Of a stretch of DNA of 50,667 nucleotides, positions 47,655-50,187 are shown one piece after another (position 1 is the stretch's first letter; every line of letters starts with the position of its first letter). Source of the DNA: Terriglobales bacterium. Its GTDB lineage: Bacteria > Acidobacteriota > Terriglobia > Terriglobales > Acidobacteriaceae. Location: the NCBI GenBank assembly GCA_025934735.1, contig JAICWP010000028.1, positions 1 to 50,667 of the forward strand, in the 5' to 3' direction. The notes under the pieces are model-generated. The model was given only the letters and a program-made list of their open reading frames with translations, had not been told where the DNA came from and searched no databases. A program made the position numbers and the translations under genes.

Positions 47655-47798
47655 TCAGAGGGTCCTTTTTATTGAAGCGGAAATGCCTGCTGCTGCCGGG
47701 GAATTGCGCCAGGAAGGGCAATTTTAACACGGCGGAGCACCCCCGCCCCCGGGGAGCCTGTTCGCTTGCGCTCGGCCTGTGCGGGCGCTGGGCTGCGG

Positions 47799-48779
47799 TT
47801 AGGTTTCGAGGTCGGAGGGGGAGGCAGGGGAATTGAGGCGGGCGAAGTGGCGGCGGACTTCGCGCTGAAACATGAGGGAAAGGGCGGGACGGGGAGTGGT
47901 CAGCGGCCGGTGGTCAGTAGTCAGTGGAGCGGTGGGTGGGCGACGGGCGGGGCGCTTCGGAGGGCGTTGGGCAGCAGTCGCCGGTGGGCGGGGCTCAGCA
48001 GGCATTTGGGGGGAATCGGGCGGGGCAGTTGCCAGTTGGCAGGTGTCAGTCGCCAGTTGGGCGGGCAAGGACAGTTGCGGCGGAGCAGGGGATGGAGGTT
48101 CTTCGGTGGTTGGCGCGACGGGCGGAAGTGATAGAGGCGGCTGCTTATCAGTTTCGGGAGAGGCAGGTCCATTGTGAGTAGCGCCGGCATCTTGCCGGCT
48201 GTCGCGAGGGCGTCCCGCCCTCGCCGGTGCGGAAGTTTCGAGGGGTTGTTCGCTCGCAGCGGTGGACGGTGCCACTGCGGCGGGCGAGACGCCCGCCGCG
48301 ACAGCCGCCGGGACGGCGGCGCTACTTTCGGCGGGGAGGGAGCGGATGATGTCGTCGTAGTAGGGCTCGAAATGGGTGTGCTTGATGTTGGCGGCGGCGA
48401 TCTGGAGGCCGTATAGGAGGAGAGAGGCCTGGCGGCGGTCAATGGTGGCGGCAAGGATGTGGCGCAGGACCCATTGCAGGGCGCAATGAATGGAGTTGGC
48501 GTCTTCCAGGAGAAAGAGGTCAGGGGGAGGTAACGGTGGAGATGGGCGGTTGGTGGGAGATGGGTCGTCGGTTGTTAGTGGCTGGTCGCTGGGAAAACCG
48601 GCGGTTAACGGTTGGCTGTTGGGGCCTGGCAAAACCGGCAGAGGGGAGGAGGCGCTAGTACGGTTGCGGTAGTGGAAGTAGCAATAGGCATTGCCCTTGA
48701 GGGCGGGCGAATCGCAGCGGGTGCCGTTGACCTTGACATGGTGGCAGCGTGGCACGCCGCGCGGCAAAGAAGTGTTCAT
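47799..48779 (-). CDS. Zinc-motif / proline-rich protein with in-frame palindromic repeats
   Basis: 326 residues. The N terminus has a zinc-binding-like motif C12-x9-C22-x10-C33-x2-H36 (CHHVKVNGTRC, YCYFH), as in DUF5763-type proteins. A helical region (about 88-148, LLEDANSIHCALQWVLRHIL) follows. Residues 150-300 are Pro/Ala/Thr-rich and largely made of repeat DNA: two 53-54-bp palindromic elements (48177-48229 and 48273-48326) and GTCAGT/CCAGTTGG words that also occur between genes. A short basic tail (FQREVRRHFARLNSPAS) ends it. The ATG at 48779 lies directly after a 215-bp repeat. I believe relatives with that leader occur in other Acidobacteria. Function is unknown. Confidence 0.65.
   Translation of the reverse strand: MNTSLPRGVPRCHHVKVNGTRCDSPALKGNAYCYFHYRNRTSASSPLPVLPGPNSQPLTAGFPSDQPLTTDDPSPTNRPSPPLPPPDLFLLEDANSIHCALQWVLRHILAATIDRRQASLLLYGLQIAAANIKHTHFEPYYDDIIRSLPAESSAAVPAAVAAGVSPAAVAPSTAASEQPLETSAPARAGRPRDSRQDAGATHNGPASPETDKQPPLSLPPVAPTTEEPPSPAPPQLSLPAQLATDTCQLATAPPDSPQMPAEPRPPATAAQRPPKRPARRPPTAPLTTDHRPLTTPRPALSLMFQREVRRHFARLNSPASPSDLET
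48177..48229 (+). repeat. Palindromic element A, in frame in a coding region
   Basis: AGTAGCGCCGGCATCTTGCC... holds two hairpins: GCCGGC-ATCTT-GCCGGC and CGAGGGCG-TCC-CGCCCTCG. It aligns base for base with the reverse complement of element B (48273-48326), with paired changes in both stems. On the reverse strand it encodes about residues 184-201 of the zinc-motif protein. Confidence 0.75.
48273..48326 (-). repeat. Palindromic element B, in frame in a coding region
   Basis: The inverted partner of element A: GCGGCGGGCG-AGA-CGCCCGCCGC and GCCGCC-GGGAC-GGCGGC. It encodes about residues 152-169 (Ala/Val/Pro-rich). Relative to A the stems differ by compensatory G-C swaps, so structure seems conserved over sequence. 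Confidence 0.75.
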
Positions 48780-48780
48780 G

Positions 48781-48995
48781 TGTACCCCCCCACCCCCTGC
48801 CTGCGGCGGCGAATCTTTGTTTTGAGTGATTTAGCCGGACGGGTCCGGGCAAAATCTTCAGAGCAAAGAATTTAGCTGAAAAATCTTTAGAACCAAGAAT
48901 TTGCCGCTGCGGGCGGGTGGTGTCTGGTTGGATTTACTGTTCTATTTTCATGATAGCAAATTGAGGTGGTATTCCGGGCAGCGGAGCAAAAGAAA
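48781..48995 (-). repeat. Dispersed leader-type repeat, copy 2 (upstream of the zinc-motif gene)
   Basis: The second copy of the 891-1112 element, inverted. On the coding strand it runs from GGAATACCACC and CTATCATGAAAA through the imperfect tandem units AAATTCTTGGTTCTAAAG and AAATTCTTTGCTCTGAAG to a G-rich run that meets the ATG at 48779. It may carry the promoter or a structured leader of that gene. It occupies about half of the 451-bp gap 48780-49230. Confidence 0.8.
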
Positions 48996-49230: not shown

Positions 49231-50187
49231 ATGCGACTGCCCGCGGATATGTCGAACCTACTTGCCGTCACAGTCCGAGACGTCATCTGGTATCGGGACG
49301 CTGTCTACGCTTTCCTGCGCGACTGTGATCTGCCAGCTGACGTTCTACAGTTAGCCGGTCGCCTCCGCGACGAAAAGATGCCCACAATTAAACTTATTCA
49401 CAGAGTTCTGGGCGAACTCGATGGCTTGGGAGACCCCGGATGGCTTGCTGCCAAACGCATGCTGACAAAAATGCACTATTGGAAAGATGTTCACACGATA
49501 GACGCAGACCGGAAATCCCAAGCTCTGCGATCTCTCGGCGAACTGCGTGCCGCCTGCGATAAATACCTGCATCAGATTGAGAAAGATGAACGCAATGTCC
49601 GCGAAGAGCAAGAACGAAGAATGCACGAAGAGCGCCTTGCGCGCGGACGAATTTCCGATCTCGACCATACCAGATTACAGCAATTCCGCGACGAATTTGA
49701 CCACGTGTACGGCATGTCCGATCCACAGGAACGTGGGAACAGGTTTGAGCAACTCATCAACAAGATTTTCAGCTACTACAGTGAGCGATCAGAGGGATCG
49801 TTCCGAAGAAAAGGCGAGCAGGTTGATGGCTTGTTTTACTTCGATAAGCATCACTACTATGTTGAGATTCGCTGGAGGAAAGAGAAGACCAATGCTGCGG
49901 ATGTATCCGTCCTTCGCGATCGTGCCAGCGCCGGGTTTGGCGGCGACACGAAGGCACTGTTCGTCTCGTTCGAAGGATTCACGAAGGAGTGCTTGGATAG
50001 CTTGCACGGCCGAACTGAAGAGAGAGTCGTACTTCTGGACGGAGCGGACCTGCGGCTGGTACTCGACTGCCAAATCGCCCTCGACGTCTTATTAGCCGAG
50101 AAACAACTCGATATGGTAAAAACTGGTCGACCGTTTAAGAGCGGGCACGAAATACTGCGCGAGCGCCAGGAGAAATCCACTACCTAA
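49231..50187 (+). CDS. Mrr-like restriction-endonuclease-fold protein
   Basis: 318 residues. The C-terminal half (about 165-285) is a restriction-endonuclease-like domain: GNRFEQLINKIFSYY, then EQVDGLFYF with Asp199 and YYVEIRWRKEK with Glu212 and Arg214 in place of the usual Lys, then TKALFVSFEGFTKECLD and a late VVLLDGADLRLVLD. The N-terminal 115 residues (VIWYRDAVYAFLRDCDLPADVLQLAGRL, then PTIKLIHRVLGELDGLGDPGWLAAKRMLTKMHYW) form an unknown helical domain, joined by a charged coiled coil (119-140). It may be an antiphage or methyl-dependent nuclease; the missing Lys leaves activity open. Its codon use is more A/T-rich than its neighbours, which hints at transfer. Confidence 0.65.
   Translation: MRLPADMSNLLAVTVRDVIWYRDAVYAFLRDCDLPADVLQLAGRLRDEKMPTIKLIHRVLGELDGLGDPGWLAAKRMLTKMHYWKDVHTIDADRKSQALRSLGELRAACDKYLHQIEKDERNVREEQERRMHEERLARGRISDLDHTRLQQFRDEFDHVYGMSDPQERGNRFEQLINKIFSYYSERSEGSFRRKGEQVDGLFYFDKHHYYVEIRWRKEKTNAADVSVLRDRASAGFGGDTKALFVSFEGFTKECLDSLHGRTEERVVLLDGADLRLVLDCQIALDVLLAEKQLDMVKTGRPFKSGHEILRERQEKSTT

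What the first reader, a model, noticed from the sequence alone, without database searches (positions are those of the whole stretch)
48177..48326. Two palindromic elements in frame in one gene, with compensatory stem changes
Elements A (48177-48229) and B (48273-48326, inverted) share the same loops and flanks (AGTAGCGCCG..., GGCTGTCGCG...), but their two stems differ by matched changes: CCGGC/GCCGG against CCGCC/GGCGG, and GAGGG/CCCTC against GCGGG/CCCGC. Selection therefore seems to act on the hairpins while the DNA is also translated. This resembles Rickettsia palindromic elements, which enter genes in frame; I know of no such report for this phylum.
Basis: partly seen in the sequence, partly recalled or inferred. 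Interest (0 to 1): 0.75.

Follow-up and report, generated by a model that had tools for sequence, protein, structure and literature searches.

The report
Inverted REP pair inside a gene
A bacterium, probably a soil acidobacterium, carries inside an open reading frame a pair of short mirror-image DNA repeats of a known mobile kind (REP elements), and the same repeats also sit in frame in well-known enzyme genes of its relatives.

Summary
A (48178-48225, +) and B (48277-48325, -) are inverted copies of a 48-nt two-hairpin element in a 326-codon ORF (47799-48779, -). Both begin with GTAG at a hairpin foot: GTAG-tagged REPs, head to head. The family has 27 matches (E up to 1) in this genome and occurs in 33 of 80 genomes of its bacterial family.

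The stem difference is not a private compensatory change. Pairs elsewhere also combine a CCGGC arm (like A) with a CCGCC arm (like B): 45 of 97 pairs, none CCGCC with CCGCC. Stem covariation across the family is strong.

In-frame insertion is confirmed in relatives: 15 units in 11 ORFs with Pfam domains, including uvrA, tsaD, valS and metH. For the window's own gene it is unproved: no close orthologue, and no coding signature in the tail.

At one site (PIG-L gene, four genera) the in-frame arm changes less than synonymous sites around it, a lead towards hairpin-level constraint. Intragenic GTAG REPs are already known elsewhere (PMC3733652).

The parts
47799..48779 (-). Host ORF, 326 aa; N-terminal DUF5763-like Cys/His domain (residues ~12-39), linker, two-helix region (~87-150), then a low-complexity tail
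   Evidence: Pfam DUF5763 E 0.001 with 19 bits, below its 26.3-bit cut-off; residues 1-152 match in 18 of 61 genomes, own included; the best-scoring relative is 36% identical over residues 11-147
48327..48779 (-). Part of the ORF similar to homologues (residues 1-151), ending at the edge of element B
   Evidence: query cut at residue 152; full ORF as query; tail alone 0 matches in 765 ORFs at E <= 0.1
48178..48225 (+). Element A: GTAG tag, hairpin 1 (48183-48199, CCGGC type, 'G arm'), linker TGTC, hairpin 2 (48204-48224)
   Evidence: 76.7 bits, best of 27 own-genome matches; fold; 16 of 16 model pairs intact
48277..48325 (-). Element B: GTAG tag at 48325-48322, hairpin 1 (48320-48304, CCGCC type, 'C arm'), linker TGTC, hairpin 2 (48299-48277)
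   Evidence: 58.9 bits; fold; 13 of 16 pairs in the model alignment, where its longer stem is shifted by one column; the only exact C-type hairpin in this genome
48226..48276 (.). Spacer between the arms, about 51 bases
   Evidence: no other DNA match in the genome covers it; pair length 148, while 24 of 45 mixed pairs measure 93-98
48178..48325 (.). Head-to-head REP pair (tags outside) encoding about 50 residues; B is read on its own strand and A on the opposite strand, both with the tag's first G at codon position 2
47799..48176 (-). Low-complexity C-terminal tail; GC at codon positions 1/2/3 is 0.74/0.66/0.62, against 0.66/0.35/0.83 in the helical region

Best explanation
A and B are the two arms of one GTAG-tagged REP head-to-head heterodimer (a REPIN- or BIME-like miniature element). 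Each arm is itself a tandem of two small hairpins: a nearly invariant GTAG-proximal hairpin and a variable distal one. The element was most likely copied into the 3' part of a DUF5763-like gene by a RAYT (REP-associated HUH transposase) acting in trans on single-stranded DNA; this step is inferred. It stayed because the unit is open in five of six frames and because the site is a poorly conserved tail. What look like compensatory stem changes between A and B are the two standing arm types of the heterodimer. Unequal arms keep each hairpin but avoid one long perfect palindrome, which would be prone to removal; PMC3733652 suggests this for heterodimers. Shown here: the family, the two arm types, the stem covariation, in-frame insertion in other ORFs, empty sites in homologues of some of them. 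Inferred: the RAYT step, the palindrome-avoidance reason, and that this particular tail is translated.
For: GTAG tag: exact in A and B and in 7 of the 9 model copies. Family in 33 of 80 genomes of the bacterial family, up to 76 matches in one genome (at most 76 candidates were scored per genome). Pattern with up to 3 mismatches in the own genome: 25+15 against 4+6 for the reversed control; the exact C-type pattern occurs in 14 of 80 genomes with 0 control hits. Arm types: 97 distinct head-to-head pairs = 45 mixed, 49 GG, 0 CC, 3 ambiguous; of 53 exact C arms 34 have a G partner, 1 an ambiguous one, 18 none, 0 a C partner; among the 24 of these in loci fetched by the C pattern alone, 13 have a G partner and 11 none. 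Covariation: the free pair of hairpin 1 is standard in 136 of 139 copies (10000 shuffles: mean 69, max 89); hairpin 2 in 25 copies 165 of 225 cells (2000 shuffles: mean 138.5, max 156). In-frame insertion: 15 units in 11 ORFs with Pfam domains; inserts fall in gaps of solved homologues for UvrA, TsaD, ValRS and an own-genome FAD subunit. RAYT link: in G092 a 204-aa RAYT gene has single GTAG hairpins in opposite orientation on both sides; in G074 a double-hairpin unit forms the 3' end of a RAYT ORF; genomes with elements have more Y1_Tnp matches (median 5 against 2, p = 0.004).
Against: No RAYT lies within 1.5 kb of an element in the own genome (5 Y1_Tnp matches). The 30 RAYT loci returned for the family show no good element (one match, 10.8 bits), and of 30 RAYT loci from element-rich genomes only 3 show one at E <= 0.1. 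One genome with elements has no Y1_Tnp match. The window's 51-base spacer is unusual, so A and B might be two separate insertions. The gene has no close orthologue, so no empty site can be shown for this insertion. Most loci were chosen for a G-type hairpin, so C arms and decayed copies are undersampled.
Confidence: 0.85

Rival explanations
1. The ORF beyond about residue 151 is not a selected protein: the REP pair sits at the 3' end of the gene, the usual REP location, and the frame merely happens to stay open through REP and intergenic DNA. 'In frame' is then an accident of stop-poor DNA.
For: Similarity to homologues fades where B starts. GC at codon positions 1/2/3 is 0.78/0.78/0.68 in the REP part and 0.74/0.66/0.62 in the tail, against 0.66/0.35/0.83 in the helical region. 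Stops are few in the other five frames of the same stretch too, 2 to 6 in about 175 codons.
Against: A proline- and alanine-rich protein raises position-2 GC by itself, and another ORF of the window (49231-50187) has position-3 GC of only 0.59, so the signature is a weak test. The linker at residues 46-86, which lies between two conserved parts and so must be translated, has the same flat pattern (0.66/0.66/0.56). The last 31 codons are more coding-like (0.71/0.55/0.77). Homologues also carry variable tails, 10 to 221 aa after the last aligned residue.
Confidence: 0.4
2. A and B differ by true compensatory mutations after duplication, under selection for hairpins in this very gene.
For: Each pair differs by matched changes and both elements fold fully.
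Against: The same CCGGC/CCGCC contrast recurs between the arms of 45 of 97 pairs, and in a second family of the class. It is an inherited arm type.
Confidence: 0.05
3. A and B are two independent REP insertions rather than one dimer.
For: The 51-base spacer has no match elsewhere in the genome, and the pair is 148 bases long where 24 of 45 mixed pairs are 93-98.
Against: They show the head-to-head order and the G/C arm pairing of the standard dimer; two of the other 44 mixed pairs are also long (117 and 143 bases; 18 are shorter than 93). B is the only exact C arm in the genome and sits opposite the best G arm.
Confidence: 0.2
4. Stem perfection and matched changes come from template switching inside quasi-palindromes (one arm copied from the other), not from selection.
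For: The process is established for bacterial quasi-palindromes (recalled, no call). It would also make both sides change together.
Against: It does not by itself explain why a unit at the PIG-L site stays nearly unchanged in four genera while flanking fourfold sites differ by 53-70%.
Confidence: 0.25

Closest known systems
GTAG-tagged REPs of Di Nocera, De Gregorio and Rocco 2013 (PMC3733652; abstract, sections 5, 14, 15 and passages read)
   Same: GTAG foot, short hairpin with a small loop, dispersed copies, head-to-head dimers, dimers with different stems, mostly intergenic, some inside genes including uvrA and tRNA synthetase genes
   Different: Reported there for Proteobacteria, Cyanobacteria, Chloroflexi and the PVC group; the only acidobacterial item among the passages I saw is Koribacter's TIR-flanked transposases. 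The unit here has two hairpins per GTAG tag and a recurrent G-arm/C-arm pairing. Their Figure 1 is not held, so I cannot say whether a listed family matches.
REPINs and RAYTs (Bertels and Rainey 2011, PMC3116915; search listing and start of abstract only, the rest recalled)
   Same: Two REPs in inverted orientation as one mobile unit; RAYT genes flanked by such repeats
   Different: Each arm here is a double hairpin, and no RAYT adjoins the elements in the own genome
E. coli BIMEs, alternating REP types (recalled, no call)
   Same: Inverted pairs built from different REP types
   Different: Different stems and loops; not in genes as a rule
Rickettsia palindromic elements (RPE; seen through passages of PMC3733652)
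   Same: Palindromes inserted in frame into functional genes
   Different: [quoted passage not shown] the units here carry GTAG

Membership tests
GTAG-tagged REP | GTAG tetranucleotide at the 5' foot of a hairpin | tested here: met
   A and B exact; 7 of the 9 model copies have GTAG, the other two GTCG and ATAG
GTAG-tagged REP | Short palindrome with complementary stem variation | tested here: met
   136 of 139 standard at a free pair; 10 of 16 pairs with changes on both sides in 107 distinct rows, rows selected by the model
GTAG-tagged REP | Many dispersed, mostly intergenic copies | tested here: met
   Own genome 27 at E<=1, up to 76 in a relative; 27 of 262 units have coding-like flanks on both sides against 524 of 1070 random windows of the same loci
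REPIN / REP dimer | Two REPs in inverted orientation as a recurrent unit | tested here: met
   97 distinct head-to-head pairs in the loci held
REPIN-RAYT system | A cognate RAYT gene flanked by the repeats | tested here: inconclusive
   One RAYT in G092 with single GTAG hairpins on both sides, two others with a match on one side; none near elements in the own genome or in the 30 loci
REPIN-RAYT system | Mobilisation of the repeat by the RAYT | not testable with these tools
   needs an experiment
Rickettsia palindromic element | CGTC tag | tested here: not met
   Tag is GTAG; RPE tag from PMC3733652 passages
Rickettsia palindromic element | In-frame copies inside functional genes | tested here: met
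   15 units in 11 ORFs with Pfam domains; for the window's own gene the translation of the tail is not proved
DUF5763 (host protein) | Pfam gathering score reached | tested here: not met
   19 bits against 26.3

The most novel reading that the evidence does not exclude
Inside translated genes the G arm of this REP is kept by selection on its DNA or RNA hairpin, beyond what the protein needs. The gene then carries a working nucleic-acid signal within its coding sequence, while the partner C arm is free to decay. The PIG-L site in four genera is the first case, and the window's gene would be another.
Probability: 0.3. Interest if true: 0.7.

Novelty: new variant of a known kind. Interest (0 to 1): 0.45.

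Why it matters
It extends in-gene REPs to a phylum where I found none in print, and adds a comparative handle: one orthologous in-frame insertion in four genera, with the insert missing in other genomes. That makes the old question of whether REP hairpins are parasites or useful signals testable in one gene, because synonymous sites in the repeat and in its flanks can be compared directly. The recurrent pairing of two arm types also gives a way to ask why REP dimers are so often asymmetric.

Tried and rejected
Rejected: 'compensatory change between A and B' as evidence of selection in this gene. Rejected: a frame-seeking insertion. Units in Pfam-supported ORFs use all five open frames (14 units: antisense 1 x5, sense 1 x4, antisense 0 x3, sense 0 x1, antisense 2 x1; one search adds L323, antisense 2); the blocked frame is never used. 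A slight excess of phase 1 (9 of 15) I judged not significant by a rough estimate that no call made. Rejected: an RNA family, no Rfam match up to E = 1 in 47700-48900. Not supported: the tail as homologous protein (0 of 765 ORFs). My idea that the low-complexity tail and linker are arrays of ACTG-like intergenic repeats was not supported: my array search found none in the window, and no second genomic copy of those parts was found. A claim of a cognate RAYT in the own genome was dropped.

Pfam scans: of ten ORFs, 9 had a domain and L313 had none. Of ten, 2 had one (L323; L078, already matched) and 8 had none. L114, also among the 27 units, was not scanned. The 15 counted units are 14 of those 27 plus the second arm in L327, whose downstream flank was too short. 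In 6 of the 11 ORFs domains span or lie on both sides of the insert (L277, L279, L299, L320, L323, L078); in 5 they lie on one side only (L276, L291, L317, L327, L354), though for PIG-L (L291, L317) orthologues match on both sides. L291 and L317 are the same gene in two genera. One of the two TsaD units is a partial unit overlapping the other.

Limits: most loci of relatives were chosen as top scores of model R1 or by an exact hairpin pattern, so intact pairs lean towards structure; copies are related and the two arms of a pair both count. Three of the four PIG-L copies (G074, G008, G071) came through R1 and so were picked for an intact G arm; the fourth (G082) came from a protein search. Fourfold sites in the repeat number only 7-8 per pair, and the six comparisons are not independent. 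Conversion among genomic copies is not excluded, though the hairpin-2 stem at this site (CCTGAGGGC) occurred in 4 of 331 distinct units, all four at this site, and only part of each genome's copies was held.

Full report
What is there. The window holds, inside ORF 48779..47799 (-, 326 codons), two inverted copies of a 48-nt element. Read from its tag, A is GTAG, hairpin 1, TGTC, hairpin 2; B is the same on the other strand. Folded apart, each gives these hairpins with z near -3.8; folded together, the arms pair mainly with each other, z = -5.33. A DNA search of the own genome with the stretch gave 13 rows, which are the window itself and 7 other places. A covariance model from nine copies found 27 places at E <= 1, the nine included, 12 of them at E <= 0.001. 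In the window nothing but A and B scores above 11.3 bits.

What family. GTAG at the foot of a short GC-rich hairpin is the mark of GTAG-tagged REPs (PMC3733652; abstract, three sections and passages read). The model finds the element in 33 of 80 genomes of the bacterial family at E <= 0.001, own included, and, in a wider draw of the class, in 10 of 151 genomes at E <= 1e-6, own included, from two families. In those 80 loci every model match of 50 bits or more is in a record named Acidobacteria, Acidobacteriaceae, Acidobacteriales, Terriglobia, Sulfotelmatobacter or Thermoanaerobaculia. The phylum of the window is inferred: a 95-base dimer in a record named Acidobacteria gp1 (L165) is identical to one in genome G074, which is in the window's family.

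Why A and B differ. In relatives the unit often stands head to head with a second one, tags outside, with a few bases between. One arm has CCGGC/GCCGG, the other CCGCC/GGCGG. Among 97 distinct head-to-head pairs in all loci held, 45 are mixed, 49 are CCGGC with CCGGC, 3 are ambiguous and none is CCGCC with CCGCC. The GG class includes single-hairpin pairs from other phyla, and many loci were picked for a G-type hairpin. Of 53 exact CCGCC arms, 34 have a CCGGC partner, 1 an ambiguous one and 18 none; among the 24 in loci fetched by the C pattern alone, 13 have a G partner and 11 none. A mixed pair also occurs in the second family of the class (L505). A is of the first type and B of the second, so their difference is inherited. 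The window's pair differs from the standard in its length, 148 bases, where 24 of the 45 mixed pairs have 93-98, 18 fewer and two others more.

Do the stems covary? Yes. In 139 copies fetched by a pattern that leaves one pair of hairpin 1 free on both sides, that pair is standard in 136 (72 C-G, 41 A-T, 8 G-C, 8 G-T, 7 T-G); shuffles give 69 on average and at most 89. In the 25 of these copies that have the TGT linker, hairpin 2, not used for fetching, pairs in 165 of 225 cells; shuffles give 138.5 with a maximum of 156, and sliding the partner by one or two bases gives 108-127. The copies are related, so the shuffles overstate independence. A larger set of 107 distinct rows, chosen by the model and therefore biased, gives 97.1% standard cells and 10 of 16 pairs with changes on both sides; none of 500 shuffles reaches either value.

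Is in-frame insertion real? For the family, yes. Of 262 distinct units with enough flank, 65 lie in an ORF with at least 50 residues on each side and 27 have coding-like base composition on both sides; random windows of the same loci give 524 of 1070 by the same rule, so genes are avoided. Fourteen of the 27, plus a second arm in L327, lie in 11 ORFs with Pfam domains: UvrA, TsaD (one full and one partial unit), ValRS, MetH, an FG-GAP/UnbV protein (pair), PIG-L deacetylase in two genera, glutamate racemase (pair), an AMP-binding enzyme, a RecA-like protein, and in the own genome a molybdenum-hydroxylase FAD subunit (L078). In 6 of the 11 the domains span or flank the insert; in 5 they lie on one side. 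Alignments to solved homologues show the inserts as extra residues: TsaD 127 to 174 against 124 to 125, ValRS 244 to 278 against 509 to 511, UvrA 159 to 207 against 179 to 189, the FAD subunit by two gaps of 18 residues in all at the element. For MetH the printed alignment runs through the insert without a clean gap, and for the racemase the printed best alignment stops before the insert. The UnbV, AMP-binding, RecA-like and PIG-L cases were not compared with solved structures.

Frames. A unit is open in sense frame 1 in 100% of 112 copies, sense 0 in 83%, the three antisense frames in 92-96%, and sense 2 in 3%, where GTAG gives a stop. The in-gene units use every frame except the blocked one. 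In-frame status is therefore what random insertion followed by removal of damaging cases would leave; no frame-seeking mechanism is needed.

The window's gene. The two conserved parts have GC at codon position 3 of 0.80 and 0.83, while the linker, REP part and tail have 0.56, 0.68 and 0.62 with high position-2 GC. This is a weak test, because proline and alanine raise position-2 GC and another ORF of the window has position-3 GC of 0.59. The best-scoring relative is 36% identical over residues 11-147; shorter matches to one part reach 60%. Searches used residues 1-152 only; with the full ORF 8 of 51 rows run past residue 152, the longest to 209, and the tail alone has no match at E <= 0.1 in 765 ORFs. 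So neither an empty site nor selection can be tested here, and whether residues 152-326 are a selected protein stays open.

The strongest comparative case. PIG-L orthologues were found in 70 of 80 genomes, own included. In 37 of them the match breaks at query residue 142-159 and resumes at 160-178, that is, most of the REP part has no match. Among the 30 loci fetched, 4 hold a full unit at the loop between AGL-KLD and HRPFK, in four genera, and one more has a weak partial match (E 0.019); the loop is variable in all 30. The G arm shows 0-2 changes in 47 bases among three of them and 5 in the fourth, while the C arm is degraded or lost in different ways (my reading). Flanking fourfold sites differ at 53-70%; in the repeat they differ at 0 of 8 for the three pairs without G082 and 2 of 7 for the three with it. 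Fisher p for third positions is 1e-4 to 0.15 in the six dependent comparisons, five of them below 0.05. The hairpin-2 stem at this site occurred in 4 of 331 distinct units, all at this site, which speaks for common descent and against copying from other units. Three of the four copies were picked for an intact G arm, so this is a lead, not proof.

Mobilisation. Y1_Tnp matches occur in 70 of 80 genomes and 5 in the own genome, none near an element there. The 30 RAYT loci returned have no good element. Of 30 RAYT loci from seven element-rich genomes 3 have a match at E <= 0.1; one RAYT (L389, G092) is bordered by single GTAG hairpins on both sides in opposite orientation, and in L411 (G074) a double-hairpin unit forms the 3' end of a RAYT frame. 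Element genomes have more Y1_Tnp matches (median 5 against 2, p = 0.004), an association not corrected for relatedness or genome quality; one element genome has none. RAYT transposition in trans is the likely mechanism and is inferred.

Print. Searches listed no report of REPs inside acidobacterial genes; most subscription papers and all preprints are outside the library. PMC6006769 (passages read) places class 3 of the HUH transposases mainly in Planctomycetes, Acidobacteria and Proteobacteria.

Noticed in passing
L078:723-1757 (own genome, contig 19): A second in-frame unit in the same genome, inside a molybdenum-hydroxylase FAD subunit gene; absent from the solved homologue.
   Followed up: yes
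L389:1141-1849: RAYT gene bordered on both sides by single GTAG hairpins in opposite orientation: a candidate cognate transposase for this element family.
   Followed up: partly
L411:1399-1698: A RAYT frame whose C-terminal residues are encoded by a double-hairpin REP unit.
   Followed up: no
L475, L476, L477, L481 (PIG-L gene): A hypervariable loop that holds a REP unit in four genera, with the G arm kept and the C arm decayed.
   Followed up: partly
L320 (UvrA): UvrA carries a unit here; PMC3733652 reports REP inserts in uvrA of Opitutus terrae and Thioalkalivibrio. Recurrent insertion in the same gene across phyla is unexplained.
   Followed up: no
window 48522-48644: The linker between two conserved parts of the host protein has the same flat codon-position GC as the REP part and the tail.
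   Followed up: partly
relatives: The host gene belongs to a family with up to 15 matches per genome (two parts of one gene can count twice), with a conserved Cys/His start, a helical region and variable tails.
   Followed up: no
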